From the NCBI GenBank assembly GCA_944324345.1, contig CALUVT010000001.1, forward strand, positions 62,001-126,000: a stretch of 64,000 bases of DNA, read 5' to 3'. Position 1 is the stretch's first letter. Each line of letters starts with the position of its first letter. The stretch comes from Candidatus Gastranaerophilales bacterium. GTDB lineage: Bacteria; Cyanobacteriota; Vampirovibrionia; Gastranaerophilales; Gastranaerophilaceae. Below, in pieces: positions 19,990 to 64,000 of the stretch. The translations under genes were made by a program, and so were the position numbers. The notes below the pieces were generated by a model. It was not told the DNA's origin. It worked only from the letters and a program-made list of their open reading frames with translations, and searched no databases.

Positions 19990-20104
19990 GGACTTTTGAA
20001 GTAAATAATGTCCGATTTGGCTTTAATAAGAGTAATTTGTGTTGGTATGTTACAAAAGTAGGAAAACAAGAACACTTTTCCGACTTCAGAGTTAATCTGT
20101 GTGT

Positions 20105-22084: not shown

Positions 22085-22086
22085 AA

Positions 22087-22815
22087 ATGAATAAAGTATT
22101 TGTAAGAACCAAAAATGTCAAAAAGTTTGTTGCCTTGATGGAAGAAGTAAAACAGCTTCCGGCGAATATTCCTAAAATAGTTCTGGTGTTTGGTGAATAC
22201 GGACTTGGCAAATCGGAAACAATTAAGTGGTGGACTTTTAAAAATGATTGCATATATGTAAGAGCAAACCAGGGAATGTCAAGCAGGTGGCTATTATCAG
22301 AAATTGTAGAGGAGTTAGGGGAAGAACCTTTCTGGCATATTCAGGATACGTTTAATCTCGTTGAGCAGAAGTTAAAACAAAATCCCAAACCGCTAATTAT
22401 TGATGAGGTTGACTACCTTGTAAACAATAATGTTATTGAGATTTTAAGGGATTTGTGTGATAGGACAGGGTGTCCAATGATACTGGTCGGGATGATAAAT
22501 ATTGACAAGAAGTTATCAAGATATCCTCATTTGAAAGATAGGATTTATAAGGCATTTAAGTTTGAACCTTATGCTAAACAGGATATCAAGCAAATTCTAT
22601 CGGAACTATCAGAAATCCAAATTACAAATGACGGCCTGGAGTACCTTGTAACAAGACACAATCAGTTTAGGCAGATAGTAAAACTCATTAATAAAATTGA
22701 AAAACTCGCCAAAACAAATGAACTAAAAGAACTTAACGAAAAAAATCTAAGGAGTATTTTAAGTGAAAGACAAAATATTACAGCTTTGCAGACGTCTAAA
22801 CAAATTTTCGCTTGA
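22087..22815 (+). CDS. TnsC/MuB-like AAA+ ATPase
   Basis: 242 residues. Walker A GEYGLGKSE lies near residue 40 and Walker B LIIDEVDYL near 103, with a sensor-type GMINIDKKL. Proteins of this type bind target DNA in an ATP-dependent way and activate the transposase (MuB, TnsC, TniB). CGGAG precedes the ATG. It sits 2 bases after the transposase and its 3' end overlaps the next gene by 53 bases, so the three form one operon. It is clearly homologous to the ATPase at 51166. Confidence 0.88.
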   Translation: MNKVFVRTKNVKKFVALMEEVKQLPANIPKIVLVFGEYGLGKSETIKWWTFKNDCIYVRANQGMSSRWLLSEIVEELGEEPFWHIQDTFNLVEQKLKQNPKPLIIDEVDYLVNNNVIEILRDLCDRTGCPMILVGMINIDKKLSRYPHLKDRIYKAFKFEPYAKQDIKQILSELSEIQITNDGLEYLVTRHNQFRQIVKLINKIEKLAKTNELKELNEKNLRSILSERQNITALQTSKQIFA

Positions 22816-23428
22816 AAATTTCGAAATATTGTCAGAAATTCCGAAAAGCGACCTTTTGCCTTTACTGGATGAATTCGTTAAGGAAGGCAAATTGATAACT
22901 AAAAACGGTGAATACATATATTGCAAACAAAACCCTGTCATACAGAATCATTCAATATTTAAACTTTATCCTGCCGTGGTAACGGATACTGTTATCAGGT
23001 GCTTTTGCGAGGACATTAAAACAATCAAGACATCTAATATTGCAAATATAGGCGAAGATCAGGTACAGAAATTTTATACAATATTTAGAACTTTGATTTA
23101 TCAAAGACAGAAAAGACAGCTTGACTCATATTATTCAAAACAGCCGCAAAAAGTTCGACACAGAAAGTTTTTCAATAGGGAAGTTTATTTGTATTTCTAT
23201 TTTAATCAAATTTTTGTATCCGAAAATATTTTAAAATCAGAGAATGACAAGATGTTCTCATCTAAGGAAAAAGCTGAATTTACAACAATATACTGTTACC
23301 TGTCAAGAAACCTGACTCATAACACAAATGCCAATAACCTGAATTATAAAATAGCAGAAACTCTATGGCGGAGAAAAAGAAGCTTTAAAGACCTTTATTT
23401 TGATTTAAAAAGTTTGGTACAACATTAG
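22763..23428 (+). CDS. Winged-helix accessory transposition protein, variable C-terminus
   Basis: 221 residues from a GTG start with AAGGAG 8 bases upstream, overlapping the ATPase gene. Residues 1-55 (LCRRLNKFSLENFEIL ... EGKLITKNGEYIY) look like a winged helix and match the N-terminus of the gene at 51956. The remaining 165 residues differ between the two. By position it could be a target selector or adaptor, the place TniQ/TnsD occupies in Tn7-like elements, but no TniQ zinc finger is visible. Function is inferred from context only. Confidence 0.6.
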   Translation: MKDKILQLCRRLNKFSLENFEILSEIPKSDLLPLLDEFVKEGKLITKNGEYIYCKQNPVIQNHSIFKLYPAVVTDTVIRCFCEDIKTIKTSNIANIGEDQVQKFYTIFRTLIYQRQKRQLDSYYSKQPQKVRHRKFFNREVYLYFYFNQIFVSENILKSENDKMFSSKEKAEFTTIYCYLSRNLTHNTNANNLNYKIAETLWRRKRSFKDLYFDLKSLVQH

Positions 23429-27102: not shown

Positions 27103-27288
27103 TTATTCCAATGGAGTAACCTCCTCAAGTTCTATATTGTAGCGTTTGCCTTGCTTATTAACACAAGTTGCAAAATCAACTGTTTTATCTGCAAAACAGT
27201 TTTTCCAAACACAAATTAACAATCCTATTTCTTGAGTTTTTAGATTTAAAACCTTTGTTCCGTATAACTTATAATCTTTTTCTGCCAT
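27103..27288 (-). CDS. Conserved small cargo protein A
   Basis: 61 residues, no recognised family. Segments YGTKVLNLKTQEIGLLIC and KQGKRYNIELE are nearly unchanged in the copy at 63368-63568. It looks like a small beta-barrel, possibly SH3/KOW-like. It starts one base inside the preceding gene (27288), so the two are coupled. Its presence in both islands beside unrelated nucleases suggests a function for the element itself. Confidence 0.6.
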   Translation of the reverse strand: MAEKDYKLYGTKVLNLKTQEIGLLICVWKNCFADKTVDFATCVNKQGKRYNIELEEVTPLE

Positions 27289-27503
27289 TATTCTTGCCTT
27301 TCAAGTATCAATTTTGAATAAATTTCATTAGGTTTTGCAGGATCAATTAAAAACTCTTTTAAAAATACAAACCTTTCACCATAAGGATTCTCGCAAATGA
27401 CAGTGTCAAGGTTATAAAATCCTATTACTTTGTAATACTCATTATCTGAGTTTTTAATGCCCTTAATCTTTTTAAGTTTATATTTTTTGCCTAATTCAAT
27501 CAT
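27288..27503 (-). CDS. Conserved small cargo protein B
   Basis: 71 residues beginning MIELGKKYKLKKIKG, with roughly 80% identity by eye to the protein at 63565-63783. AAGGGG lies before the ATG. It has no known motif; alternating charged and hydrophobic residues suggest a small beta fold. It is the first gene of the operon, and its 5' region is also conserved between the islands. Confidence 0.6.
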   Translation of the reverse strand: MIELGKKYKLKKIKGIKNSDNEYYKVIGFYNLDTVICENPYGERFVFLKEFLIDPAKPNEIYSKLILERQE

Positions 27504-27820
27504 TGTTACCCCTTATATTCATTTACAGCAATGACATATATCACTCTCAATGAGTTAAATATCAAGCAAAGATACACAAAAAGTATCATTTTGACACAAA
27601 GAAGGTATTACTGTAATAAATAGTTATATAAAAAGCGAATAACAGGTATTTTAAGCAAAATTCTTTGGTAAAGTATAATTCCCTATCTCTTATGAGTATA
27701 AAATTCAATATAGAGCATTTTGAACACTTTTTGAACGGGGGTTCATTTATCTTTAAACGCTTTATGATTTTTTATGCAGATAGGATTGTTTATTATTTTT
27801 GTCTGAAATAAAATAAATTT
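27504..27820. promoter_or_regulatory. Conserved intergenic control region of the small-gene operon
   Basis: The first 65 bases upstream of gene B match the region upstream of 63783. They include an imperfect ATTG(T)T...AGCAAT inverted repeat and TTAAATATCAAGCAAA. A tandem repeat TTTTGAACACTTTTTGAACG lies at about 27719-27740 and again at about 63884-63904. The far end carries the promoter of the MutH-like gene: TTGTTT, 17 bp, TAAAAT, then 6 nt to the ATG at 27821. Confidence 0.5.
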
Positions 27821-49215: not shown

Positions 49216-49303
49216 TCTGTCTCAAAACAAGTGATGAATGTGTTGCACAAAGCATTACAAGGATTTTGAGACAATGGAAAACCACGTTGAGACAATTAAA
49301 TAC
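49216..49303. repeat. TTGAGACA repeats at the transposase start
   Basis: TGTCTCAAAA (49218-49227, inverted) and TTTTGAGACA (49264-49273) with TTGAGACAAT (49266-49275 and about 49290-49299) surround the transposase start codon. GACATTGAGACG also occurs in R1 and R2. They may be transposase sites, a left end or an autoregulatory operator. Confidence 0.45.
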
Positions 49304-51097
49304 ACCCCTGAGAAGGCAAAACAAAACGCTCTTGCAAAACTTGATTTAATCCGCAAATGGCAGGAGTTTCGCCGTAAAGCTGTCAACAAACTTCAAGCAG
49401 ACTATGATTTTGTCAAATTGCATAACAGTTCAAATTCTTATCTTTTCAATGTTTTAGGTAAAATTTCACGAGGAAGCCTGCATCGTTGGAAAGCATGTTT
49501 AGACGGGACAGAAGATTACACAAGGCTAATTCCTAATTACAAATACGTTTCTGTAAATGAATACAGAACCTGTCTAACGGATGAAGAAATCAAAATATTT
49601 ATGGGCTTGCTCCTACACCCTAATAGAATTTGTATCGGCAAAGCAATCGCACTTACAAAATACAAGCTCAAAGAGCAAGGTCAAAGTTTCATCCCTGCAG
49701 ATATTACATTCAGACGCTACGCAAAATGGTTTAAGGACAACAATTACGACAAATGGGTACTTGCAAGAGACGGTGAAAAAGCACTTTCAGACAAAGTCGA
49801 ACCTTATATTAAAAGGGACGCAAGCCTGCTTGATGTCGGGGATATTTTAGTCGCAGACGGTCACAAACTTGCGTTTCAAGTGATTAATCCGTTTACGGGC
49901 AAGCCTTGTCGGGCAACTTTAGTCGGATTTTTAGACTGGAAATCAACAGCACTGGTCGGTTATGAAATTATGCTTGAAGAAAATACCCAATGCATTGCAA
50001 GTGCCCTAAGAAACGCAATAATAAACCTCGATATGATACCTAAAATTGTCTATCAAGATAACGGCAGAGCATTTAGAGCAAAATACTTTACAGATGATAA
50101 AGGATTCGGAGAATTAGGCTTTTATGGGCTATATGCAAAACTCGGGATTGAAACGGTATTTGCAAGACCTTATAACGCAAGGTCAAAAGTTATTGAGAGG
50201 TTCTTTAAAGAATTTCAAGAAGGATTTGAAAAACTAATGCCAAGTTATGTCGGCTCATCAATTATCAACAAACCTGCATACTTGAAAAGAAATGAAAAAT
50301 TCCACTCCAACCTGCATAATGCCCTCTTGGTTGGCGGCGTTAAACGGGCACGCAGCGGAGCTGACTCCAGCCCTCTGCCGCCAATCCGCTACATCCCAAC
50401 AATAGAAGAAACAATCAAAATGATTGATATGTGGCTTAAGTTCAAGAATTCTCAATCCTGCACAAATGCACCTAATATGACAATCGCAGAAGTTTTAGAA
50501 AATCGCAAAAAGCAGAATATTGATAAAAGCTTGCTTGACGATTTGATGCTGGCAACAGAAGTCAAAACAATTCAGCGAAATGGTGTAAGGTTCTTAAACT
50601 GCGATTATTTTGACGAAAGATTATACGGGCTGAGAGGAAAAGTTTTAGTAAAATACAACCTGTTTGATCTAACAAGTGTAAAAGTTTTTACCCAGAAAGG
50701 CGAATACTTATGCACCGCAGAGCGAGTAACCGAAACCCACCCAATGGCAAAGATTTTAGGAACTGTTGAGGATTTAGAGGATTACAAACAAAAAATCCAA
50801 AAACAACAAAAACTGAAAAGAAAAACTATAAATTCGGTTAAAAAATTATTGACTAATGATGAAATAAAACTAATTGAAGCAAGGTCGAACCAAGAAGAAA
50901 TTGAAAATTCTAACAATTTTCACAAAGAGTTCAAGCCTCGTTCAAATGGTGTTCAAAAAATAAACAACGGAGAAAAGTCCCTCCCGATTTTCAAAAACAA
51001 TTCAGAAAAGTACGAATATTTGATAAAACATAACCCAAGCGACACTTGGATTGCAGAATTTAAACAAACAAAGGAGTACAAACTTTTATATGAATAG
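49274..51097 (+). CDS. MuA/TnsB-like DDE transposase with in-frame palindromic insertion
   Basis: 607 residues from the ATG at 49274. It is clearly homologous to the transposase at 20105 from its residue 90 onward, but lacks the N-terminal HTH of that protein. Catalytic residues are D195 (VADGH), D262 (YQDNG) and E308 (VIERFF). At about residues 350-372 it carries 18 extra residues (VGGVKRARSGADSSPLPPI) encoded by palindromic element B, placed between the core and the next helix. The stop codon TAG overlaps the first bases of element C. The insertion probably leaves the catalytic core intact. Confidence 0.85.
   Translation: MENHVETIKYTPEKAKQNALAKLDLIRKWQEFRRKAVNKLQADYDFVKLHNSSNSYLFNVLGKISRGSLHRWKACLDGTEDYTRLIPNYKYVSVNEYRTCLTDEEIKIFMGLLLHPNRICIGKAIALTKYKLKEQGQSFIPADITFRRYAKWFKDNNYDKWVLARDGEKALSDKVEPYIKRDASLLDVGDILVADGHKLAFQVINPFTGKPCRATLVGFLDWKSTALVGYEIMLEENTQCIASALRNAIINLDMIPKIVYQDNGRAFRAKYFTDDKGFGELGFYGLYAKLGIETVFARPYNARSKVIERFFKEFQEGFEKLMPSYVGSSIINKPAYLKRNEKFHSNLHNALLVGGVKRARSGADSSPLPPIRYIPTIEETIKMIDMWLKFKNSQSCTNAPNMTIAEVLENRKKQNIDKSLLDDLMLATEVKTIQRNGVRFLNCDYFDERLYGLRGKVLVKYNLFDLTSVKVFTQKGEYLCTAERVTETHPMAKILGTVEDLEDYKQKIQKQQKLKRKTINSVKKLLTNDEIKLIEARSNQEEIENSNNFHKEFKPRSNGVQKINNGEKSLPIFKNNSEKYEYLIKHNPSDTWIAEFKQTKEYKLLYE
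50326..50390 (-). repeat. Palindromic element, copy B (inside transposase gene)
   Basis: 65 bp in the opposite orientation to A, C and D: starts CTTGGTTGGCGGC, ends GCCGCCAATCCGCT. Stems are TTGGCGGC/GCCGCCAA, GGGC/GCCC and a GGAG/CTCC tip. It keeps the reading frame open. The paralogue at 20105 has only three codons at this site. Confidence 0.8.
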
Positions 51098-51155
51098 CGG
51101 ATTGAAAGCAGTGGGTCTAAGGCGAAGCCATACCCGTTTATTGCGAGCAACCAAG
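51096..51155 (+). repeat. Palindromic element, copy C (transposase-ATPase junction)
   Basis: 60 bp, AGCGGATTG...CAACCAAG. It shares its ends and the GTTTA segment with A, but the inner stem is GGGT/ACCC instead of GGGC/GCCC and the tip is GGC-GAA-GCC. Both changes keep pairing. It supplies the last bases of the transposase stop codon and separates the gene from the ATPase, which in the first transposon follows after 2 bases. Confidence 0.78.
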
Positions 51156-51165
51156 AAAGGATAAA

Positions 51166-51846
51166 ATGAAAAAAATCTTTATAAAAACTCGAAATGTAAG
51201 GAATTTTATAGGCTTAGTTGAAGCCCTGAAAAGCAAACCTAAAAACATTCCTAAAATGGGACTTATATATGGTGAGCCGGGGCTCGGAAAATCGCAAACG
51301 GCACTTTGGCTAGCCTGCAAGTATGATGGGATTTACATTCGAGCCTCAAACCTTATGACAAGCAGGTGGCTTGTTGAAGAAATCGTTAGGGAAATGGACG
51401 AACTTCCTCGGTATTTAACCTCAGACAACTTTAATGTCGTGATTAGCAAACTTATTCAAAAGCCAAAAATTATTTTTGTAGATGAAATCGACTACTTGAT
51501 GAACAATTACAAAAGTGTCGAGACCCTAAGAGATATCCACGATAAAACAGATTGCCCGATAATCTTTGTTGGAATGGGCTTGGCTCTTAGAAAACTTGAA
51601 AGATACAAGCACCTGTATGACAGATTTAGTGAGATTGTAAAGTTTGAGACCTTTGAAATAGAAGATTTAAGCCAGATTTTTAGCCAACTCTCTGAAATAC
51701 CATTTACCCCTGATTCGATAGAATATATCCACAAAAAATACAACAGGTTCAGACAAATAGTACAGCTTATAAGCAAACTTGAAACTATTGCAAAAGAAAA
51801 TGGTCTAACAGAAATTACATTTGAGATTATAAAGGAACTCGTATGA
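51166..51846 (+). CDS. TnsC/MuB-like AAA+ ATPase (second module)
   Basis: 226 residues with Walker A GEPGLGKSQ, Walker B IIFVDEIDYL and sensor GMGLALRKL. It aligns along its length with the ATPase at 22087. GAAAGG, just after element C, is its ribosome site. The stop TGA directly abuts element D. Expected role: ATP-dependent target binding and transposase activation. Confidence 0.88.
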   Translation: MKKIFIKTRNVRNFIGLVEALKSKPKNIPKMGLIYGEPGLGKSQTALWLACKYDGIYIRASNLMTSRWLVEEIVREMDELPRYLTSDNFNVVISKLIQKPKIIFVDEIDYLMNNYKSVETLRDIHDKTDCPIIFVGMGLALRKLERYKHLYDRFSEIVKFETFEIEDLSQIFSQLSEIPFTPDSIEYIHKKYNRFRQIVQLISKLETIAKENGLTEITFEIIKELV

Positions 51847-51942
51847 AGCGGATTTTCGGTAGGGCGCCGTGTGAGCGAAAGCGAACCCAGCCCGTAAGGT
51901 GTCGGTCAGACGTTACTCTGCCGACACCCCGAATAATCCAAG
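51847..51942 (+). repeat. Palindromic element, copy D (ATPase-wHTH junction)
   Basis: 96 bp, AGCGGATT...AATCCAAG, starting at the base after the ATPase stop codon. It keeps GGGC/GCCC with a GCGAAAGC tip and has an extra hairpin, GGTGTCGG/CCGACACC (8 bp, 51898-51928). The following CGAAAGG serves the winged-helix gene. In the first transposon the corresponding genes overlap. Confidence 0.75.
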
Positions 51943-51955
51943 ACGAAAGGACAAT

Positions 51956-52516
51956 ATGAATATAGAACGATTAGCTAAAAGATTAAAAGAATTTACCCTT
52001 GATGATATTGAATTGATAGCAGAATGCGATTGCAAAACAGAGCTTGAACAGCTTTTGAACAGCAATAAAATACTTTTTGAAAACGGGATTTATAAATACA
52101 ATGAGGAAACAAAAACAGGTGAAAATTATGAAATCTTCAGCCCGCTAAAGAATAAACACCTAAAAATTAGTATAGAAGATGCAAAAGAATATTTTATGAA
52201 AAATTATGTTGAAAAGTACTGCAAATTCGAGACCTACAGAAACTATAACGCCATTTTTAATTTTAATATTATACCTTTTATAAACTGCTATTACCTGCAT
52301 GAAATTGATATTGAGTCGATAAAAGAACTTTTTAAAGTCTGCGAATTGAGACGCCTGAAGCCCCGCAGAATTAAAAATACAATGGCTCTTCTAAACCAGC
52401 TGATAAAATATTTCCAACACCTTGGAGTGATTGATAGAAGTTGCGTTTATCAGGTTAAAAAAGTACAAGACAAAAACCATTTTGGTATTGAAAACTTAAT
52501 TTTTGAGGGATTTTAA
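51956..52516 (+). CDS. Winged-helix accessory protein with integrase core-binding-like C-terminus
   Basis: About 186 residues from the ATG at 51956; in-frame codons upstream belong to element D. The N-terminal 50 residues match the winged helix of the protein at 22763. Residues about 80-165 (YFMKNYVEKYCKFETYRNY ... LNQLIKYFQHLGVID) resemble the core-binding (SAM-like) domain of tyrosine recombinases, but no catalytic domain follows. A DNA-targeting role is plausible. Its stop overlaps the next start. Confidence 0.55.
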   Translation: MNIERLAKRLKEFTLDDIELIAECDCKTELEQLLNSNKILFENGIYKYNEETKTGENYEIFSPLKNKHLKISIEDAKEYFMKNYVEKYCKFETYRNYNAIFNFNIIPFINCYYLHEIDIESIKELFKVCELRRLKPRRIKNTMALLNQLIKYFQHLGVIDRSCVYQVKKVQDKNHFGIENLIFEGF

Positions 52517-52914
52517 TGAGTAAAATGAAATTATTTAAACAAGCAGAGCAAATGTATTTAAAAGGCTCGACCGTTAGTGAAATCTCTTTAGAACTTGGGA
52601 TTGCAAAAAGGACTTTATTTTACTGGAAAAAGCAATATGATTGGGATAAAAAGCGAAAAGAATCGGTATATGATAACTCCCAGTTTAAAGAAGATTTGCA
52701 AAAGTTTGCCCAAAAGCTTATGGATAAAATTGCAAACAGTAATAAAACTAATAGCCAGATAAGCCAAGCAGAATACTATTCCCTAGTGAACATTTTAAAC
52801 TTTCTCCCTGAATTGAAAGAAAATAATACTCAAAACGAAACACCACAAATAAAAACCGAACTTTCCCCAGACTTCATTCGCCAAATCGAGCGTGAAATTT
52901 TAGGTATAGAGTAA
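52516..52914 (+). CDS. Small HTH protein of the transposition module (second)
   Basis: 132 residues: a homeodomain-like HTH (YLKGSTVSEISLELGIAK, RTLFYWKKQYDWDKK) and a charged tail. Equivalent to the gene at 25820. It is coupled to the winged-helix gene by a 1-base overlap, which is probably the ancestral order; in the first transposon a second transposase separates them. Confidence 0.6.
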   Translation: MSKMKLFKQAEQMYLKGSTVSEISLELGIAKRTLFYWKKQYDWDKKRKESVYDNSQFKEDLQKFAQKLMDKIANSNKTNSQISQAEYYSLVNILNFLPELKENNTQNETPQIKTELSPDFIRQIEREILGIE

Positions 52915-52915
52915 A

Positions 52916-54766
52916 TTAATAATTAAAATTTTTAACTGTTGCAATGCCAGACCTTTGTAATAATTCGAAAAATTCATTAATATCTTTTCTTTTCTGTATA
53001 GGATATTTCATGCTAGAACGAATATTTGAAAAAGTAAAAGTTATCGATTTTTTTGCTCTTGATAAAGCCACAAAAAAAGCACATCTATCTTCTGCTGGTT
53101 GGTTTTTAAAGTTCCAAAAAGCAGAATCTTCCAGTCCAACGAAATATACGGCAGAATATTCCAACCCCTTACTTTTGTGTATAGTCATAATAGGAATAGA
53201 ATTTAACCCACAAAAATTATTGATAGCATATTGCCAATTTTTATTAGCCTCTTCGTATTCGATATTAAAAAGTTCAATAAATTTATCTAGTATTGTATCA
53301 AAATAACTTCCTTGACTGTAAACGGGAAAATATGCTTTGATTCGATTTATATCCAAAAATGATTTTATAGTATCAACAATTTCAGATATATTACGATTCT
53401 GATCTATCATAATTTTTATACTATTTTTTAAATCAAATATTTCTTCTTGCAACTCTTCATATGTAGAATTATTGTTGCTATCAATACTAAAAATATTTAT
53501 CACGGTTTCTTTAATTTTTTCCCATTTTTGAGCTTGCCTTATATTTATTGCACAAGAAATAATATCTAAAATAAGATCAATGATCGGTTCTTTTATCAGA
53601 TCTTGATATTCAATTTCAACTCTTGCACGGATGTTTTTCTCTTTTAATGCTTTAATAATCGTCGGACTATAATCCTGTACTCGTTGTTTACATATAATAC
53701 AAATATCATTAGGTTTAATACCTATGCAAATTTTTTCCTCAATATTGTTAGCAATAGCATTTGCTTCCAATTCCTCATCATCCGAAATAAAAAGATTAAT
53801 CTCCCCGTCTGAAGAATTCCACTTTTCAGAACATTTAATATCTAAATTTTCTTCTTGCAAAGATTCATACATACGTCTTTGAAGTTCAACTAATTTTGGT
53901 GCAGATCTATGATTCATCAATAAAACTTTTTGGTCAGATTGAAATTCATCATTATATATTTCGAAAACATTTTTCATAGCCCCTGCCCAAAGCATAATAC
54001 GCTGTTTATTGTCACCAACCGCAGTTATTATAGAATTTGACCCTAAAAAACAGTCTTTGATGAATTTATATTGTAAATCAGTAGTATCTTGAAATTCGTC
54101 TAAAAATACATGGCTATATGTTGTTTGAATAGCTAATTTAATTTGTTCATTGGTAAGTATTATATAGTCTGCCAATTTATTAATCATTTTGAAAGTAAGA
54201 GTTGCTTTATGATTATCAAATCCTTTAAGCAATAAAGACCATATTCTACTTCTAAATTCATCTAAATTTAAAGGAAGAGAAGTTTCTTCAAGAGTTTTGT
54301 CATAGTATGTATTAAACTTGCTACTTATAGTTCCATTCAATATAGATCCTTGCCTAATAAAAGCCTGATCTATTATATTTAAATCGTTTATTAAATAATC
54401 TGCTTTAGGTCTTAATTCTTCAGGCAAAGCATAAAGAAAGTGATCCAAAATCCTTTTAAAAAACGCATCATACGTCATAGAAGAGAATCTCAATTTTGCA
54501 TCTTGTCCACAGCGTTTTTCAACTCTTTCTTTTAAATTCTGTGCTGCGTCTGTCTTAAAACTAATCGCCAATATTTTTCTCGGATTTTTACAAAGATTTG
54601 TTTGTAAAAGATAAGTCGCTTTTTGAGCTAATAATTCAGTTTTTCCAGCTCCTGGTCCTGCGATTACTAAAATATTATTCTGAGAAGTTACAGCTTGAAA
54701 TGCAGATTCTTCAAGAAGAATATTATCACTTGGATGCCAATTTCTTTTATCAATAATTTTCATCAT
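52916..54766 (-). CDS. gajB: GajB-like UvrD/Rep helicase (Gabija)
   Basis: 616 residues of superfamily 1 helicase. Motif I is AGPGAGKTELLA, motif II is VFLDEFQDTTDLQ, QRIMLWAGA and LLMNHRSAPKL are motifs III-IV, TIHKSKGLEYSAV is motif V and FVALSRAKKS is motif VI. It begins 1 base after the OLD-like gene, forming the GajA-GajB order of Gabija anti-phage systems, where GajB senses nucleic-acid termini and activates GajA. Confidence 0.88.
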   Translation of the reverse strand: MMKIIDKRNWHPSDNILLEESAFQAVTSQNNILVIAGPGAGKTELLAQKATYLLQTNLCKNPRKILAISFKTDAAQNLKERVEKRCGQDAKLRFSSMTYDAFFKRILDHFLYALPEELRPKADYLINDLNIIDQAFIRQGSILNGTISSKFNTYYDKTLEETSLPLNLDEFRSRIWSLLLKGFDNHKATLTFKMINKLADYIILTNEQIKLAIQTTYSHVFLDEFQDTTDLQYKFIKDCFLGSNSIITAVGDNKQRIMLWAGAMKNVFEIYNDEFQSDQKVLLMNHRSAPKLVELQRRMYESLQEENLDIKCSEKWNSSDGEINLFISDDEELEANAIANNIEEKICIGIKPNDICIICKQRVQDYSPTIIKALKEKNIRARVEIEYQDLIKEPIIDLILDIISCAINIRQAQKWEKIKETVINIFSIDSNNNSTYEELQEEIFDLKNSIKIMIDQNRNISEIVDTIKSFLDINRIKAYFPVYSQGSYFDTILDKFIELFNIEYEEANKNWQYAINNFCGLNSIPIMTIHKSKGLEYSAVYFVGLEDSAFWNFKNQPAEDRCAFFVALSRAKKSITFTFSNIRSSMKYPIQKRKDINEFFELLQRSGIATVKNFNY

Positions 54767-54767
54767 A

Positions 54768-56807
54768 TCAACTTTCTAACATACTTTTTGCTTTATCAAA
54801 CAATCTTGTAAACACATCTGGCACAGATGCTTTTAAAGCTTCATCCGAAATTGATGATAACATTAACATATGTGTAATTGGCTTACCTCTATTCAAGAAA
54901 AAGTAATTATACCAGATCATCAATTCTTTTTGAGCTTCACTATATGTTTCTCCATTTCCACCTTTTTCTTTGAGTGCATTTCTTATATCCTTAGCAATTC
55001 TATCTTTGTATTCAGATCTAGATTTTTCTTCTTCTGTGAGCTCTTTAATTTTTTTATAATGTTCATCAATTTTTATTTCAGGACCTTCATTTTTCTCTAA
55101 AGTATTTTTATAAAAATTTTCATATTTTTCAAGCATCAAAAAATCAATATCTAAAGGACTTGAAAAATACACATTATAAACTTCTAAATGCTTCAGCCAA
55201 GCATCCATATTTTCAATTTCGGAATTATTTTTTTGTGGCATCATATTGAAATTCTCATCAGTCATAACCTCTGTGCAAATTTTTAATAATACATTTTTAT
55301 CGATACCGTTTTTGAGTAATTGACTTAATGCATAATGTATTCTCCCCCAACCTCCACCATATCGTTCTTGATCTAAATCTAAAAGAGTAATATATGGTAT
55401 TTTTAAATTATTTAATAAGCGCCAAAAATGATTAACATGCCTACCTCCAAGAGGAACAATAGATATTTCACTCAAATCAATATTTCCATTGTATTTTTCC
55501 CATAACTTTGATAATATCAGCTCTTCGCTATCACCTTCCCCTAAAATAACAAGTTTAGCAAAATATAATTCAGGGTAAGCTTTAACTGCTTCTTTTACAT
55601 ATTTATATTGTTCATCTGTTTCATCTGGTAAGGTTATATTGCAAATATTGGTATATCCATTATTATCTGATCTAAAATAGCGGACTTGAGAAGGGTCAAT
55701 TCTTTTAATAATAGATACGGAATGCGATGTTATAATGGTTTGAGCATTATTTTTTATGGCTATATTGTTTAAATTGTTAATTAATCTACCTAATAAATGT
55801 GGTGCAATATGATTTTCTGGCTCTTCTACCGCCATAATGGTCAATACAGGCAAGTTTTTATTAAAAGATACATTCTCTAAATTATCATCTTGCTCTTTTT
55901 TGATAGTATTTTCAATATTTAGAATACTATCTATTAATGAAATATAAAATAGTGACTTCAAACCATCACTCATTTGGTCAATAGTATAATCACTTCCAGT
56001 TTCGGTAGGACTAAAAATAATATCGGCTCTTCTTATAGAAGTTTCAATATCAGCACTATTAAATTTTAATGATACATTTTTATATTTATCATGTGTATCA
56101 TAATTTTTCCAACGTTTATCTAAAGAATCATTTAAAATTTTTACACCATCTTCGGCTTCAAATACTGAATTCAATTCTTCAATTTTTGATTTAATACTAT
56201 TTAGTCTTTCATCTTTCCAATTTATATTATTGATAAGCTGATACATCATAGCCCCAGAAGTATTTTTAAGTTGTTTTGAGGGATCTCTAACGGCAGGTAC
56301 ATATATAACTCTAACCTTATCTAAATCTCTTCTTTGTGCAGTAACATAATCTTTATCTTCGATTTCTTTAGATTCTGGGCAGGTAATATATCTAATCTGA
56401 TAATCTATAGCACCTTCTATTGTATTGCTTTTTTCCCATGTTGCATCCAATCTAATCCTTATATAAGGAATGCCACCTGGAGTATCTACAATTACATGCT
56501 CAAAAAATTGTGGTATTGAAATACCTTCTTCTCCCTCTTGAATTTTATTAAATTCAAAAACAGCTTCTATATACATTTTTTGTTCTGTCATATTTTCGGG
56601 TCGCATATTCTTGGGAACATAAAAATCACTACGTTTTATATTTCTATCACTTGTAAACTCTGAAAACATACAGTTTAAAGCAGCTAATACAGCGGTTTTA
56701 CCAGTGCTATTGCTACCTACAAATGTTGTTAAGTCGTCAATAGTAATAATATGCTCTTGCTCACCAAAACAGCGAAAATTAAATAATTTTATTTTTCTTA
56801 ATCTCAT
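54768..56807 (-). CDS. gajA: GajA-like OLD-family ATPase/TOPRIM nuclease (Gabija)
   Basis: 679 residues. The ABC-type ATPase has Walker A FVGSNSTGKTA, signature MSDGLKSL, Walker B MAVEEPENHIAP and H-loop TSHSVSII. The TOPRIM has LGEGDSEELI and TLLDLDQE. This is the layout of GajA, which nicks phage DNA when nucleotides are depleted. It is somewhat longer than the well-studied GajA of about 580 residues, mainly in the C-terminal third. It is divergent from mcrB over a 222-bp AT-rich promoter region. Confidence 0.87.
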   Translation of the reverse strand: MRLRKIKLFNFRCFGEQEHIITIDDLTTFVGSNSTGKTAVLAALNCMFSEFTSDRNIKRSDFYVPKNMRPENMTEQKMYIEAVFEFNKIQEGEEGISIPQFFEHVIVDTPGGIPYIRIRLDATWEKSNTIEGAIDYQIRYITCPESKEIEDKDYVTAQRRDLDKVRVIYVPAVRDPSKQLKNTSGAMMYQLINNINWKDERLNSIKSKIEELNSVFEAEDGVKILNDSLDKRWKNYDTHDKYKNVSLKFNSADIETSIRRADIIFSPTETGSDYTIDQMSDGLKSLFYISLIDSILNIENTIKKEQDDNLENVSFNKNLPVLTIMAVEEPENHIAPHLLGRLINNLNNIAIKNNAQTIITSHSVSIIKRIDPSQVRYFRSDNNGYTNICNITLPDETDEQYKYVKEAVKAYPELYFAKLVILGEGDSEELILSKLWEKYNGNIDLSEISIVPLGGRHVNHFWRLLNNLKIPYITLLDLDQERYGGGWGRIHYALSQLLKNGIDKNVLLKICTEVMTDENFNMMPQKNNSEIENMDAWLKHLEVYNVYFSSPLDIDFLMLEKYENFYKNTLEKNEGPEIKIDEHYKKIKELTEEEKSRSEYKDRIAKDIRNALKEKGGNGETYSEAQKELMIWYNYFFLNRGKPITHMLMLSSISDEALKASVPDVFTRLFDKAKSMLES

Positions 56808-57029: not shown

Positions 57030-58964
57030 ATGGACAAAAATCATGATGTAAATTACTTTTGGGTTAATCAAGGTTCAAATTTTCGTAAAGAATTAAATGA
57101 TGGAATTTTATGTTCTCCTCAAAGAGATAAAAGAGGAAGTGATAAATATAAATTAATGCGAGATTTACATATCGGTGATATTATAATTAACTATAAAAAA
57201 CCCGAAATTGTAGCTTTTTCGGAAGTATTAGAAGAAGCATATATTAACGAAAATGATGATTATGAAGTTAAATTAAAATATACTCTCCTAGATAAACCAA
57301 TAAAAAAAGAAGAATTTAAAAAAAGATTAGGTTCTATTGAAAAAGTTCAGCAAATACTATCAAATATTAATAATATACCATTTGACAAAAATTTTAATGT
57401 TAATTTAGGATACTTATTTAATATCAACAAAGAAATTTTTGATTTGATTTTTAACAATAACCCAATTTTAAGTTTAAAATGGTGGGAAATAGCTGCTATT
57501 GCTATGTATAAAGAAGATCCAAATAGAGAATATAAACCAGCAGAAGTCTTAAAATTAGAATTTGTAAAAAAATCGATAGAATTAAAAAATGTAAAGAATC
57601 CTAGTATTGCAACAGAATTAAGAGAATGTTCAGATGATATATCTAGTAATTATAAAAGAAAAAATCGAAATTATTTTTTACGTAATGGAGAGTTTTATAA
57701 ATTATCAGAAGAAGGAAAAAATTATATACAAAAAAATTTGCGATTATTTATTAACAATAATAATTATAAATTGAATCATAGTAAAAATATAATTTTATAT
57801 GGACCTCCAGGAACAGGAAAAACTTATAATACAGTTATCAAAGTAATGGAAATTATAAATGACAAAAAATATGATTCTGTAGATGCTGAGCTGTATAAAG
57901 ATTTGAAAAAACAATTTGATAATTTAAAAAAACAAGGTCAGATTGAATTTGTAACTTTCCACCAATCTTATTCATATGAAGAGTTTGTTGAAGGGATTAA
58001 GCCATATATTCCAGAATGGGGAACTGTTGAAGAAAATAACAGATTTATTGGGCAAGATGGTATTTTGAAAAAAATATGTAATTCCGCAAAAACAACTATT
58101 GAAGGAAATTTTGAAAAAATATATTCTCAGTTTATAGAAGAAATCGATGAAAATTATGAATTCAAAACAAAAAAAGGCTCTTTTAAAATAAGAGTCAACG
58201 ACAATGATGGTTTAACAATTCGTACAGGTGATAATTTCGAAAAAGAAACATGTGGAACAATAACAAAAGAACAAATTAAAAATCAAACTTTTACATCTTT
58301 AGGGCGAAAACAAAAGTTAGAAGCGATAACAAAATATTTAAAAGAAAAATACGGGTTAACGTTTTCCACTTCTATTGCAGTTAAACCTCATATATTAATC
58401 ATTGATGAAATCAACAGAGGTGATGTTTCAAAAATATTTGGTGAGCTTATAACCCTTATTGAAGAAGATAAGCGTATTGGCAAAGAACATCAAATGACAG
58501 TTACTCTTCCTTATTCAAGAGAACCTTTTGGAGTTCCTAATAACCTATATATTATTGGAACTATGAATACAGCGGATCGTTCTATTGCTCTTTTAGATAC
58601 TGCTTTAAGACGTCGTTTTGATTTTGAGGAAATGATGCCAAAACCTGAGCTTCTAAGAGGAAAAGATATTGAAGGTGTTGACTTAGAACAATTATTAACT
58701 AAAATTAATGACCGAATTAAAAATGAGTATGATAGAGATCATCAAATTGGTCATTCATACTTAATGGAAGTTGAAAATAAAGAGCAACTTGAAAGAGCTT
58801 ATAAAAATAGAATATTACCACTATTAAATGAATATTTCTATAATGACATTGACTCAGTTGCAAAAATTTTAAATTGTAAACCTAATGACATTAGTTCAAA
58901 AGAAAACTGGTTTAATGTATTAAAAGAAGCTCAGAAACCTACTAAGAAAGAAAATGAACAATAA
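57030..58964 (+). CDS. mcrB: McrB-like GTPase with N-terminal EVE/PUA-like domain
   Basis: 644 residues. The N-terminal 110 residues (VNYFWVNQGSNFRKEL ... LHIGDIIINY) look like an EVE/PUA-type modified-base reader. The AAA+ motor has GPPGTGKT, FHQSYSYEEFVEG, LIIDEINRGD and the McrB signature MNTADRS, with ALRRRFDF sensor. McrB oligomers translocate with GTP and activate McrC. AAAGGAG is present. It overlaps mcrC by 11 bases. Confidence 0.92.
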   Translation: MDKNHDVNYFWVNQGSNFRKELNDGILCSPQRDKRGSDKYKLMRDLHIGDIIINYKKPEIVAFSEVLEEAYINENDDYEVKLKYTLLDKPIKKEEFKKRLGSIEKVQQILSNINNIPFDKNFNVNLGYLFNINKEIFDLIFNNNPILSLKWWEIAAIAMYKEDPNREYKPAEVLKLEFVKKSIELKNVKNPSIATELRECSDDISSNYKRKNRNYFLRNGEFYKLSEEGKNYIQKNLRLFINNNNYKLNHSKNIILYGPPGTGKTYNTVIKVMEIINDKKYDSVDAELYKDLKKQFDNLKKQGQIEFVTFHQSYSYEEFVEGIKPYIPEWGTVEENNRFIGQDGILKKICNSAKTTIEGNFEKIYSQFIEEIDENYEFKTKKGSFKIRVNDNDGLTIRTGDNFEKETCGTITKEQIKNQTFTSLGRKQKLEAITKYLKEKYGLTFSTSIAVKPHILIIDEINRGDVSKIFGELITLIEEDKRIGKEHQMTVTLPYSREPFGVPNNLYIIGTMNTADRSIALLDTALRRRFDFEEMMPKPELLRGKDIEGVDLEQLLTKINDRIKNEYDRDHQIGHSYLMEVENKEQLERAYKNRILPLLNEYFYNDIDSVAKILNCKPNDISSKENWFNVLKEAQKPTKKENEQ

Positions 58965-60249
58965 ATCAATAATTGTTTACGAAAATAAAAATATTTATTC
59001 CTGCAAGGGAGAATGCAACAGTTGTAATCATCAAGATAGCGATAATTTGTGTTGCGTAAATTATTGCAAGCCTGATTATTTTAAAGAATTAAAACAGTAC
59101 TGTTTGATAGAAAATCAAGACTGTGGGCTAGAATATTCTGCAAAAGCTAATTGTATCAGTATAAACAAATATACAGGAATAGTACAATTAAAAGATGGAA
59201 CTTATTTGGAAATTTTACCAAAACTTAGCGGAAATACAATAGATGAAAGTCGTAAAATTTTTGAAAACCTTGTTTTGGCATCTAAAAATTTAACCAGAGA
59301 ATATAAACACAATAAGGATGTTGTTTCACAGACTAAAAAAAATAAACATGTTATAGAAATACTTATATCAGTATTTTGCGATGATTTATATGAAATCTTA
59401 AAAAAAGGTATTAAAAAATCTTACATTAGAAAATCAGAAAATTTAAATAAATATAAAGGTAAATTAAATTTTGCAGAACAAATAAAACATAATATTACAA
59501 ACCAAAGCAGATTTTTTGTTAATTATAGTGAGCTTAGTTTAGATATTGCAGAAAATAAAATTTTGAAAACGGCTTGTTTATACCTGGTTAAACAAACTCA
59601 AAACGATAATAATAAAAAGATTTTGCGAAGATTTTTAGTTGAGTTGGATGATGTTTCTATTTCAACAAATCTTGAAAAAGATTTGCAGGAAGTAAATATT
59701 AACAGATTAAATTCCTACTATGAAAGACCATTATTATATGCAGAATTTTTCTTGAGAAAGCAAGTCTTTTTCCCTAAAAAGGGTCGCTCAAAGCTTCCAG
59801 CACTGCTATTTCCTTTAGAAAAAATGTTCGAAGATTATATTGAATCAATTTTAAAATCCGCAAACATATCTTATAATTCGCAATATAGTCGTCATTACCT
59901 TCTTAAAAATAATCTTTTTAAAACTAAGATGGATTTTGTTATTTTTAAAAAAGATAAAAAAGCAATCATACTTGATGCAAAATGGAAAGAATTAGATTCA
60001 TCCTCAGATAAATTTGATGTAGCACAAGCAGACTTATATCAGCTGTTTGCATATTCTGAATTAATAAAAAACAGAGAAAAAGACGTTCAGAACGTTGAAA
60101 TAATGCTTCTTTACCCTGAATCAGATAAATTTAAAGAAAAAGTAATAAAATGGGAATATTTTAATAATACACCAGTAAGTATTGTGCCGATTAATGTTAT
60201 TAAGAAAGAAAATAAGTTGTTTTTAGATGAATTAGGGGATTATGTTTAA
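58954..60249 (+). CDS. mcrC: McrC nuclease subunit with Cys-rich N-terminus
   Basis: 431 residues. A PD-(D/E)xK core lies near the C-terminus (KMDFVIF then AIILDAKWK), and the McrC-type middle region has LPKLSG. Residues about 14-55 are unusual, with ten cysteines including CKGECNSC, CCVNYC and ECGL-type spacing (QDCGL), which may hold a metal or Fe-S cluster. With McrB it forms a type IV enzyme that cuts modified DNA. Confidence 0.9.
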   Translation: MNNKSIIVYENKNIYSCKGECNSCNHQDSDNLCCVNYCKPDYFKELKQYCLIENQDCGLEYSAKANCISINKYTGIVQLKDGTYLEILPKLSGNTIDESRKIFENLVLASKNLTREYKHNKDVVSQTKKNKHVIEILISVFCDDLYEILKKGIKKSYIRKSENLNKYKGKLNFAEQIKHNITNQSRFFVNYSELSLDIAENKILKTACLYLVKQTQNDNNKKILRRFLVELDDVSISTNLEKDLQEVNINRLNSYYERPLLYAEFFLRKQVFFPKKGRSKLPALLFPLEKMFEDYIESILKSANISYNSQYSRHYLLKNNLFKTKMDFVIFKKDKKAIILDAKWKELDSSSDKFDVAQADLYQLFAYSELIKNREKDVQNVEIMLLYPESDKFKEKVIKWEYFNNTPVSIVPINVIKKENKLFLDELGDYV

Positions 60250-61515: not shown

Positions 61516-62295
61516 ATGAATGAAAAACTAAAAAATTCTATAAAACTAGCCTTAAAAGATACTTTTAATAAATGGCTAAAAGAAAAACAACAAACTATAA
61601 AGGAGTATAAAAACCTTGATTTAGAAGAAAATCAAAAAGAGTTGTTGCAGTATGAAAATTACGATATTGATCTAATTGATAATTGTATAAAAGAAATTAT
61701 TAATCAAGGATTTCCTCCAAGTGCATTAAGCTTAGTTATTAAACGAATAAATCATTTTTATTCTGATTGGATTCCAAAGCAAGCACCTTCTATTTGTATT
61801 ATTAATTTTGATTGTAATAATTATATAAATGCTCTTGAATGGACTCTTGTAAATATTCATGAGTTAAATTTCTTTGATATGTCTGACATTGATTTTAAAT
61901 TACCATATAATCAATGTCATTATTGTGGAAAACCTAATAGTTTTATGCATCAGACAGGAGTCAAATCATTCAACAGAAAAAGAAAATACTGTCATGATAG
62001 TAAATGTGCAAAAATTCATGATGCAAACGGAAGCAAACCTAAAGAACATGAAAATTGTTGTTTTGGAAAATTTGCAATTGAAAAGAAAAAATTGTATGAA
62101 CAAATACGTCGAATTAAAACTGAAAATGATATACAAGCAAAAATGGAATTATTTATAGCTTATTGTGAAAAACGATTCAAGGAAAACTTAAAAATAAAAT
62201 GGTCTATTCAAACTGAACATCAAAAAGCAATATTTGAAGATGACTGGTTTTTAGAAGAAAGCTGGAATAGTAACATTAAAGAAATTATCTCTTAA
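61516..62295 (+). CDS. Unknown protein with Cys/His zinc-finger-like segment
   Basis: 259 residues, AGAGG upstream. Residues about 132-180 contain CHYCGK, then KYCHDSKCAKIHD and HENCC, a likely zinc site of the kind seen in CGNR-like or integrase-associated fingers. The remainder is helical and acidic. It converges with the gene at 62285, overlapping by 11 bases. It lies in the defence cargo, so a nucleic-acid role is plausible but unproved. Confidence 0.55.
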   Translation: MNEKLKNSIKLALKDTFNKWLKEKQQTIKEYKNLDLEENQKELLQYENYDIDLIDNCIKEIINQGFPPSALSLVIKRINHFYSDWIPKQAPSICIINFDCNNYINALEWTLVNIHELNFFDMSDIDFKLPYNQCHYCGKPNSFMHQTGVKSFNRKRKYCHDSKCAKIHDANGSKPKEHENCCFGKFAIEKKKLYEQIRRIKTENDIQAKMELFIAYCEKRFKENLKIKWSIQTEHQKAIFEDDWFLEESWNSNIKEIIS

Positions 62296-63109: not shown

Positions 63110-63150
63110 TATATTTAAATTATATCAAACAAGTTGTAAATATTTTTCTT

Positions 63151-63408
63151 TTACATTTTCTCAATATACCAATTAGAATTTCCAAAGTGATTGAAGTTCC
63201 ATTGTAATTGGAAGTAGAAATTGTATTCCATTGAATTATCATCTTTAAAATTGTAAGAATATTTATTTAGCTGTGTTCTGCGATAACTTTCAAAAGCAGT
63301 TCGGATTTCTTTTGCAAACTTTTTTCTAAATTCAGAATAAGTTATTTCTAAAGTTTCTCTTGTAAGCTTATTTTTCAAAATCATCTTCAAATCCTCGTAT
63401 GTTATCAA
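63151..63408 (-). CDS. Third gene of the conserved small-gene operon
   Basis: 85 residues, basic helical N-terminus and aromatic C-terminus (YNFYFQLQWNFNHFG). It overlaps the gene at 63368-63568 by 41 bases. The first transposon lacks it. No family recognised. Confidence 0.5.
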   Translation of the reverse strand: MITYEDLKMILKNKLTRETLEITYSEFRKKFAKEIRTAFESYRRTQLNKYSYNFKDDNSMEYNFYFQLQWNFNHFGNSNWYIEKM

Positions 63409-63568
63409 GCTCTATGTTGTATCTTTTGCCTTGTTTATCAACGCAAGTCGCGTAATCTATCTCTGCATCTGCAAATTTATTTTTCCAAATACAAATCAGC
63501 AAGCCAATTTCTTGTGTTTTTAAATTCAAAACCTTTGTGCCATAAAGTGCATAGTCTTTTTCTGTCAT
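63368..63568 (-). CDS. Conserved small cargo protein A (second copy)
   Basis: 66 residues, closely related to the protein at 27103-27288 (YGTKVLNLKTQEIGLLIC and CVDKQGKRYNIEL), with a longer acidic tail. It overlaps its upstream neighbour by 4 bases, so translation is coupled. Function unknown. Confidence 0.6.
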   Translation of the reverse strand: MTEKDYALYGTKVLNLKTQEIGLLICIWKNKFADAEIDYATCVDKQGKRYNIELDNIRGFEDDFEK

Positions 63569-63783
63569 TGTTCTTTCCTTTCAAGTATTAAATTTGAATA
63601 GATATCATCAGGCTTTTGTGGGTCTATTAAAAACTCTTTCATAAATACAAACCTTTCTCCGTATTTGTTTTCACAAATTACAGTGTCGAAATTGTAGAAG
63701 GCAATTACTTTGTAATACTCATTATCATAGTTTTCAAAGCCTTTAATCTTTTTAAGTTTGTATTTTTTGCCTAATTCAATCAT
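63565..63783 (-). CDS. Conserved small cargo protein B (second copy)
   Basis: 72 residues, closely related to the protein at 27288-27503. It is first in a three-gene operon with overlapping genes. AAGGGG precedes the ATG. Function unknown; strong conservation between two elements with different cargo argues for a role in the element's own life cycle. Confidence 0.6.
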   Translation of the reverse strand: MIELGKKYKLKKIKGFENYDNEYYKVIAFYNFDTVICENKYGERFVFMKEFLIDPQKPDDIYSNLILERKEQ

Positions 63784-64000
63784 TGCTACCCCTTATATTC
63801 ATTTATAGCAATGACATTCATTACTCTTAACAAGTTAAATATCAAGCAAACTCTCTCAAAACTTATCATTCAGACACAATTCATTTTTTGAACACTTTTT
63901 GAACGCTATTTAAACAGGAGTTAAATACCATTTAAGAATTTTTGTTGTCAGGATAGTTTATAAAAAATGCGTTTACAGTATCAGAATCTCGCCTTAAGTG
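63784..64000. promoter_or_regulatory. Conserved control region of the small-gene operon (second copy)
   Basis: No gene. The 65 bases next to the start codon match 27504-27568, including the ATTGCT...AGCAAT inverted repeat and TTAAATATCAAGCAAA. TTTTTGAACACTTTTTGAACG follows at about 63884-63904. The sequence beyond is not shared and runs to the window end. Confidence 0.5.

What the first reader, a model, noticed from the sequence alone, without database searches (positions are those of the whole stretch)
58990..59140. Ten-cysteine N-terminal insertion in McrC
McrC proteins usually start with a beta-rich McrB-binding domain. Here the first 55 residues have CxxxCxxC, CC and CxxxC spacings that could bind a metal or Fe-S cluster, suggesting redox- or metal-dependent control of the nuclease.
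Basis: partly seen in the sequence, partly recalled or inferred. Interest (0 to 1): 0.5.

Follow-up and report, generated by a model that had tools for sequence, protein, structure and literature searches.

The report
Conserved cysteine loop in McrC nuclease
A gut bacterium's anti-phage DNA-cutting enzyme carries an extra small loop whose five cysteines are kept unchanged while everything around them changes, which suggests that the loop grips a metal ion, probably to hold that part of the enzyme in shape.

Summary
McrC (58954-60249 +, 431 aa) has 8 cysteines in the stated interval, not ten. A loop of about 22 residues (C17-C38) is inserted inside the N-terminal scaffold domain, between a beta strand and a helix. 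None of 39 other McrC proteins with the N-terminal domain has the pattern. A tree made without the N-terminus puts the Cys set in one clade (99/98), found in one Gastranaerophilales family apart from one doubtful contig. Nuclease and GTPase-activating residues are intact. The partner McrB swaps its N-terminal and AAA-inserted parts while McrC keeps the loop, so the loop is not tied to target recognition. Most likely it is a small structural zinc (or other metal) site stiffening the scaffold domain between the McrB-binding finger and the nuclease. Fe-S or redox control is possible but untested. A new variant of a known kind, moderately interesting.

The parts
58954..60249 (+). McrC: PD-(D/E)xK endonuclease subunit of a type IV (McrBC) restriction system, 431 aa
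   Evidence: Pfam PF10117 E 1.8e-70; best structural match TgMcrC 6ut7_G Z 23.9 over model residues 4-431
59002..59067 (+). Cys loop, residues C17-C38, with the five invariant Cys C17, C21, C24, C34, C38 (and C33)
   Evidence: 19 of 19 distinct loop-bearing relatives keep the five Cys; invariant columns in A1 and A2; model places it between strand 13-15 and helix 40-52, pLDDT under 50 for 20-37
59101..59154 (+). Further Cys C50, C57, C67 after the loop; C50 and C67 nearly invariant, C57 lost in clades C and D
59704..59706 (+). R251, counterpart of TgMcrC Arg263 that stimulates McrB GTP hydrolysis
   Evidence: alignment to 6ut5, invariant in A1 and A3; role from PMC7680126
59932..59982 (+). Nuclease catalytic residues D327, D341, K343 (TgMcrC Asp340, Asp354, Lys356)
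   Evidence: alignment to 6ut5, invariant in A1, A3, A5
57030..58964 (+). McrB: AAA+ GTPase partner, 644 aa, overlapping mcrC by 11 bases; GPPGTGKT, LIIDE, MNTADR (NxxD) motifs
   Evidence: Pfam AAA_5, NCBIfam McrB-like, translation
57030..57784 (+). McrB N-terminal part, no match to the McrB of loci with 89-91% identical McrC (L008, L010): exchanged module
58091..58400 (+). Segment inserted in the McrB AAA domain, not shared at DNA level with L008 or L010: second exchanged module

Best explanation
The window encodes an ordinary, apparently active McrBC type IV restriction system whose McrC belongs to a clade that gained, apparently once, a small cysteine loop in the scaffold domain. The five invariant Cys (C17, C21, C24, C34, C38), helped in most members by C33, C50 and C67, most likely coordinate one zinc ion (perhaps two). 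The metal site pins the loop onto the base of helix 40-52 and so stiffens or enlarges the scaffold domain. That domain connects the finger, which enters the McrB ring and triggers GTP hydrolysis through R251, to the nuclease domain; in TgMcrC the scaffold also takes part in the McrC-McrC dimer. Shown here: the loop, its position, the fixed Cys, one clade of bearers, the intact catalytic residues, and independence from McrB's exchanged modules. Inferred: metal binding, zinc as the metal, a structural rather than regulatory role.
For: 19 of 19 distinct loop-bearing sequences keep all five Cys, with C17 at a fixed distance from YE and C38 at a fixed distance from F43. Five of 8 Cys against 1 of 48 other residues of positions 11-66 are invariant over five representatives, Fisher p 8e-5. 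In all 20 within-clade pairs compared no loop Cys differs, while Cys codons vary silently TGT/TGC. Single clade in a tree without the N-terminus, 99/98. Model and TgMcrC match over the scaffold domain; domain roles from PMC7680126. Loop kept while McrB modules are exchanged. CX2C and CX3C pairs with a variable first spacing (x3 or x4) suit zinc better than a rigid three-Cys Fe-S motif (inference).
Against: No metal-binding Pfam domain matches the loop and no solved metal protein matches it by sequence beyond chance level. The model gives the loop pLDDT under 50, so no geometry was seen. Five Cys is one more than a zinc site needs, and the number of Cys within the loop varies from 6 to 8, which would also suit a polynuclear metal cluster. 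No experiment.
Confidence: 0.5

Rival explanations
1. The Cys hold a [4Fe-4S] (or other Fe-S) cluster, structural or redox-active, as in some other nucleases and helicases (Cas4, AddB, XPD-type helicases; recalled).
For: CX3CX2C plus further Cys in clades A and B; the hosts are anaerobic gut bacteria (recalled), where Fe-S proteins are common.
Against: The first spacing changes to CX4CX2C in clades C and D, and no Fe-S family was matched. No spectrum or metal analysis exists.
Confidence: 0.2
2. A metallothionein-like polynuclear thiolate cluster that lets free metal (Cu, Zn, Cd) change McrC activity: a metal sensor.
For: Extra, variable Cys: CLTCECDECNDICKCRC in L014 and eight Cys in the loop of L032.
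Against: Most members of clades A and B have only six Cys in the loop; I saw no gene of metal handling shared by the McrBC loci listed, judged by eye. I found no precedent of a metal sensor in a McrBC enzyme (search listings).
Confidence: 0.12
3. A thiol redox switch (reversible disulfides) rather than a metal site.
For: Vicinal C33-C34 and many Cys in clades A and B.
Against: C33 is not conserved (I in clades C and D). The fixed Cys come in CX2C and CX3C spacings typical of metal ligands (recalled). The cell is anaerobic and reducing (recalled).
Confidence: 0.08
4. No ligand: the Cys are a frozen ancestral feature without function.
For: The clade seems confined to one bacterial family.
Against: Five fixed Cys in a loop where nearly every other residue changes between clades, with silent codon changes at the Cys.
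Confidence: 0.1

Closest known systems
Thermococcus gammatolerans McrC (PDB 6UT5, 6UT7)
   Same: Same three domains, including the N-terminal scaffold domain; profile alignment from residue 4 on, Z 23.9 over model residues 4-431; catalytic D, D, K and stimulating Arg kept.
   Different: TgMcrC has other residues and no Cys at the place of the loop (alignment).
Escherichia coli K-12 McrC (PDB 6HZ4, 6UT6)
   Same: Finger and nuclease domains.
   Different: Lacks the N-terminal scaffold portion (PMC7680126), so it has no counterpart of the loop.
Zinc-ribbon-bearing CnuC (McrC) of CoCoNuT systems (PMC11090510)
   Same: A McrC homologue with a predicted zinc-binding Cys module (passages read).
   Different: There the zinc-binding motifs are CPxC, two or three of them, and go with NxD-type McrB; here there is no CPxC and McrB has NxxD.
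Other Gastranaerophilales McrC without the loop (e.g. L004-L007, L035, L038-L043)
   Same: Same bacterial order, same family, 25-36% identity.
   Different: About 20 residues shorter in the N-terminal domain, no Cys pattern.

Membership tests
McrC (PF10117) of McrBC type IV restriction systems | Pfam match above the curated cut-off | tested here: met
   237.9 bits against a cut-off of 23.9
McrC (PF10117) of McrBC type IV restriction systems | PD-(D/E)xK catalytic residues | tested here: met
   D327, D341, K343 align with Tg Asp340, Asp354, Lys356 and are invariant
McrC (PF10117) of McrBC type IV restriction systems | Basic finger residue that stimulates McrB | tested here: met
   R251 aligns with Tg Arg263, invariant
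McrC (PF10117) of McrBC type IV restriction systems | Encoded next to a McrB GTPase with the NxxD signature | tested here: met
   McrB 57030-58964 with MNTADR, overlapping mcrC
McrC (PF10117) of McrBC type IV restriction systems | GTP-dependent cleavage of modified DNA | not testable with these tools
   needs purified proteins
CoCoNuT (CnuB/CnuC) systems | NxD instead of NxxD in McrB | tested here: not met
   MNTADR = NxxD; definition read in PMC11090510
CoCoNuT (CnuB/CnuC) systems | CPxC zinc-ribbon motifs in CnuC | tested here: not met
   no CPxC in the translation; motif named in PMC11090510
CoCoNuT (CnuB/CnuC) systems | Coiled-coil segments | not tested
   no coiled-coil prediction was run
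Radical-SAM-type CX3CX2C cluster | Strict CX3CX2C spacing | tested here: not met
   CX4CX2C in L003, L014 and L036; the motif itself is recalled
Known zinc-finger, zinc-ribbon or Fe-S domain | Match to a curated family or solved metal protein | tested here: inconclusive
   12 of 12 members of A2 scanned: none of the 5 Pfam families listed at E up to 1 is a named zinc-finger, zinc-ribbon or Fe-S family. In the PDB only chance-level rows, best E 0.27, among them MYND finger chains at E 0.8 and 1.1. The loop is too short and too poorly modelled for a fold search of its own.

The most novel reading that the evidence does not exclude
The loop carries a redox- or metal-responsive cluster (a [4Fe-4S] or a polynuclear metal-thiolate cluster) in the scaffold domain that gates McrC dimerisation or nuclease action, making this the first McrBC restriction system under cofactor control, spread as cargo of Tn7-like elements among anaerobic gut bacteria.
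Probability: 0.18. Interest if true: 0.65.

Novelty: new variant of a known kind. Interest (0 to 1): 0.42.

Why it matters
The scaffold domain is a little-understood part of McrC: present in TgMcrC, largely absent from E. coli McrC, and in the way of the modelled DNA (PMC7680126, passages). A naturally fixed metal-binding loop there would give a handle on what the domain does, and a metal or redox requirement would have to be known before any such system is assayed in air. The loop also marks a clade that moves between genera while McrB changes its N-terminal and inserted parts, a natural experiment on which McrBC parts are exchangeable.

Tried and rejected
Rejected: frame or start error making the Cys spurious (same start and frame as relatives, silent Cys-codon changes). 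Rejected: chance Cys density. Rejected: a loop tied to one McrB N-terminal domain. Rejected: CoCoNuT membership (NxxD, no CPxC).

Led nowhere: Pfam, NCBIfam and PADLOC on the N-terminus or on McrC gave no metal domain. PDB profile search with the N-terminal alignment gave only chance rows. Two viral-contig scans with the Cys-clade alignments found no relative; a third with a broad McrC alignment found 11 loci, and none of their 11 McrC-like ORFs shows the pattern (one of them, L112, is a fragment). Phage records: 1 weak match. Plasmids: 155 records, all under 60% identity, of which I read 9, none with the pattern. The first structure model was poor (pLDDT 44.5); the second is usable except for the loop. 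Known fold for the loop: none listed, which excludes nothing. Paper searches for McrC with McrB, cysteine and zinc, McrC with Fe-S cluster (8 of 13 papers listed), and restriction endonuclease with iron-sulfur cluster and antiphage defense showed no report of such a loop in the listings; two broader searches and one on Gastranaerophilales defence neither. I read passages, not whole texts, of PMC11090510 and PMC7680126; of the other papers I saw only listings.

Full report
What is there. The ORF at 58954-60249 (+) encodes a 431-residue McrC directly after and overlapping McrB (57030-58964). Pfam McrBC matches residues 70-388 with 237.9 bits, and no Pfam family reaches its cut-off on the first 69-90 residues. 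The count of ten is wrong; the three spacings named are right.

Not chance. With the Cys frequency of 56 ORFs of the window (262 Cys in 17,640 aa), 0.0026 stretches of 41 residues with at least 8 Cys are expected; McrC has one, and one other ORF (6666-8714, 10 in 41) is denser. The pattern C-x3/4-C-x2-C-x3-9-C-x3-C occurs once in 20,744 aa of the window's stop-to-stop ORFs.

Relatives came from 58 genomes near the window's, 383 genomes of the order, one scan of genome contigs (10 loci) and other searches. Of 73 distinct McrC-like ORFs in the loci then held, 19 match the full pattern YE-x6-C-x3/4-C-x2-C-x3-9-C-x3-C-x4-F, 31 have an N-terminal domain without it, and 23 were scored as having no N-terminal domain (fragments, McrCs that start at the finger domain, or, as L038, missed by my start rule; L038 was seen to lack the pattern). 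Of eight plasmid McrCs read later, none has it. So 19 of 19 loop-bearing sequences keep the five Cys and 0 of 39 others with an N-terminal domain show the pattern. Being loop-bearing is judged by the pattern itself, so the independent statement is the tree: the rows with the pattern form one clade when the N-terminus is left out, and no row inside that clade lacks it.

Tree. With 28 chosen sequences cut from the ILPK motif on, so without the Cys region, the 12 Cys-bearing rows form one group with support 99/98 and one change of label. The nearest loop-less sequence by identity, L035, has 33-36%. Three sub-clades (A about 88-91%, B 57-61%, C 48-49% identity to the window) and one distant member (D, L036, 35%) keep the five Cys. 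Across five representatives 5 of 8 Cys in positions 11-66 are invariant against 1 of 48 other residues (Fisher p 8e-5). The representatives are related by descent and the aligner favours matched Cys, so the p value is a guide; but C17, C34 and C38 are anchored without gaps to YE and to F43. In 20 within-clade pairs the loop differs at 0 to 4 of 22 residues, never at Cys; between window and L009 4 of 22 against 11 of 278 elsewhere, but in other pairs the loop is no faster than the rest. Cys codons alternate TGT/TGC.

Where it sits. A usable AlphaFold2 model (mean pLDDT 77) places C17 just after strand 13-15 and C38 just before helix 40-52; residues 20-37 are not modelled confidently. The model matches TgMcrC chain 6ut7_G over residues 4-431 (Z 23.9, rmsd 5.0, 374 aligned) and E. 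coli McrC only from residue 88-97 on; the profile alignment agrees. In the passages of PMC7680126 that I read, TgMcrC residues 1-98 with 289-298 form a barrel-like scaffold domain that holds finger and nuclease domains in place, takes part in the McrC dimer and clashes with modelled DNA; E. coli McrC lacks its N-terminal portion. The loop is therefore an elaboration of the scaffold domain, not of the McrB-binding finger.

The enzyme looks active. D327, D341 and K343 correspond to TgMcrC Asp340, Asp354 and Lys356, and R251 to Arg263; all are invariant in A1 and A3. McrB has Walker motifs and the NxxD signature MNTADR.

The loop does not follow McrB's variable parts. The window's McrB and those of L008 and L010 share 95-98% identity over the last 189-190 residues, and their McrCs are 89-91% identical, but their N-terminal parts show no similarity, and at DNA level a stretch inside the AAA domain is not shared and the likeness starts again at 58401. 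The other loop-bearing loci compared have McrBs of 439 to 832 residues. Insertions in McrB GTPase domains are known in general (PMC11090510). So the Cys loop probably serves something common to all these systems.

Distribution. In the order sample, 21 of 383 genomes, in 12 genera of one family, carry a Cys-type McrC with its N-terminus (my count from the rows, checked); in the phylum sample 16 of 386, all of that family. The named contigs are labelled Gastranaerophilales or Melainabacteria, except one labelled Christensenella (L016, 91% identity over 130 residues, 3.8 kb), which may be a mis-binned contig or a transfer. Of 398 genomes of that bin's phylum, 39 had any match; apart from that bin's own contig none of the loci read had the pattern. 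One identical protein occurs in four genera (L002, L027, L028, L029), and 3 of 33 genomes of the window's genus, the window's own included, have the Cys-type gene: the system moves, unless the binning is at fault. In several loci it follows Tn7-like transposition genes.

Mechanism. Five fixed Cys in CX2C and CX3C pairs in a hydrophilic, variable loop of a presumably cytoplasmic protein are best read as metal ligands (inference). I favour a structural zinc site (0.5) because the first spacing varies and no rigid Fe-S motif is kept; an Fe-S cluster (0.2), a metallothionein-like cluster or metal sensor (0.12), a thiol switch (0.08) and no function (0.1) remain. Nothing here tests metal identity or control of activity.

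Known or new. McrC homologues with zinc ribbons are known in CoCoNuT systems (PMC11090510, passages), but with CPxC motifs and NxD McrBs. In the listings of three searches I saw no report of this loop. It is a new variant of a known kind.

Noticed in passing
52916-56807 (-): A Gabija defence pair, GajB (52916-54766) and GajA (54768-56807), sits between Tn7-like transposition genes and McrBC (PADLOC E 4e-219 and 3e-254). In L010, L011 and L012 McrB follows the matching transposition genes directly, and in L008 it follows others, so Gabija looks like an additional cargo.
   Followed up: partly
49238-52914 and 20099-23428 (+): Two Tn7-like transposition gene sets (rve, Mu-transpos_C and TniB Pfam matches for the second; the first judged from its sequence and DNA likeness only). 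The second leads into the defence cargo.
   Followed up: partly
63138-63997: Sequence shared, whole or in part, with otherwise different McrBC-bearing loci (L009, L010, L011, L013, L094, L097, L101) and apparently similar to window 27125-27599; perhaps the far end of the element.
   Followed up: no
57030-57784 and 58091-58400: McrB exchanges its N-terminal domain and a segment inside its AAA domain between near-identical systems, with sharp borders.
   Followed up: partly
6666-8714 (+): 682-aa protein with a signal-like start, 10 Cys in 41 residues and SLH-like repeats as judged by eye; the only denser Cys stretch in the window.
   Followed up: no
61516-62295 (+): 259-aa protein with CxxC-type Cys pairs, no Pfam or NCBIfam family; a similar gene lies downstream of McrBC in L008.
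   Followed up: no
L013:2344-3663 (G128): A Cys-type McrC broken by stop codons or a frameshift; its Cys loop is still intact.
   Followed up: no
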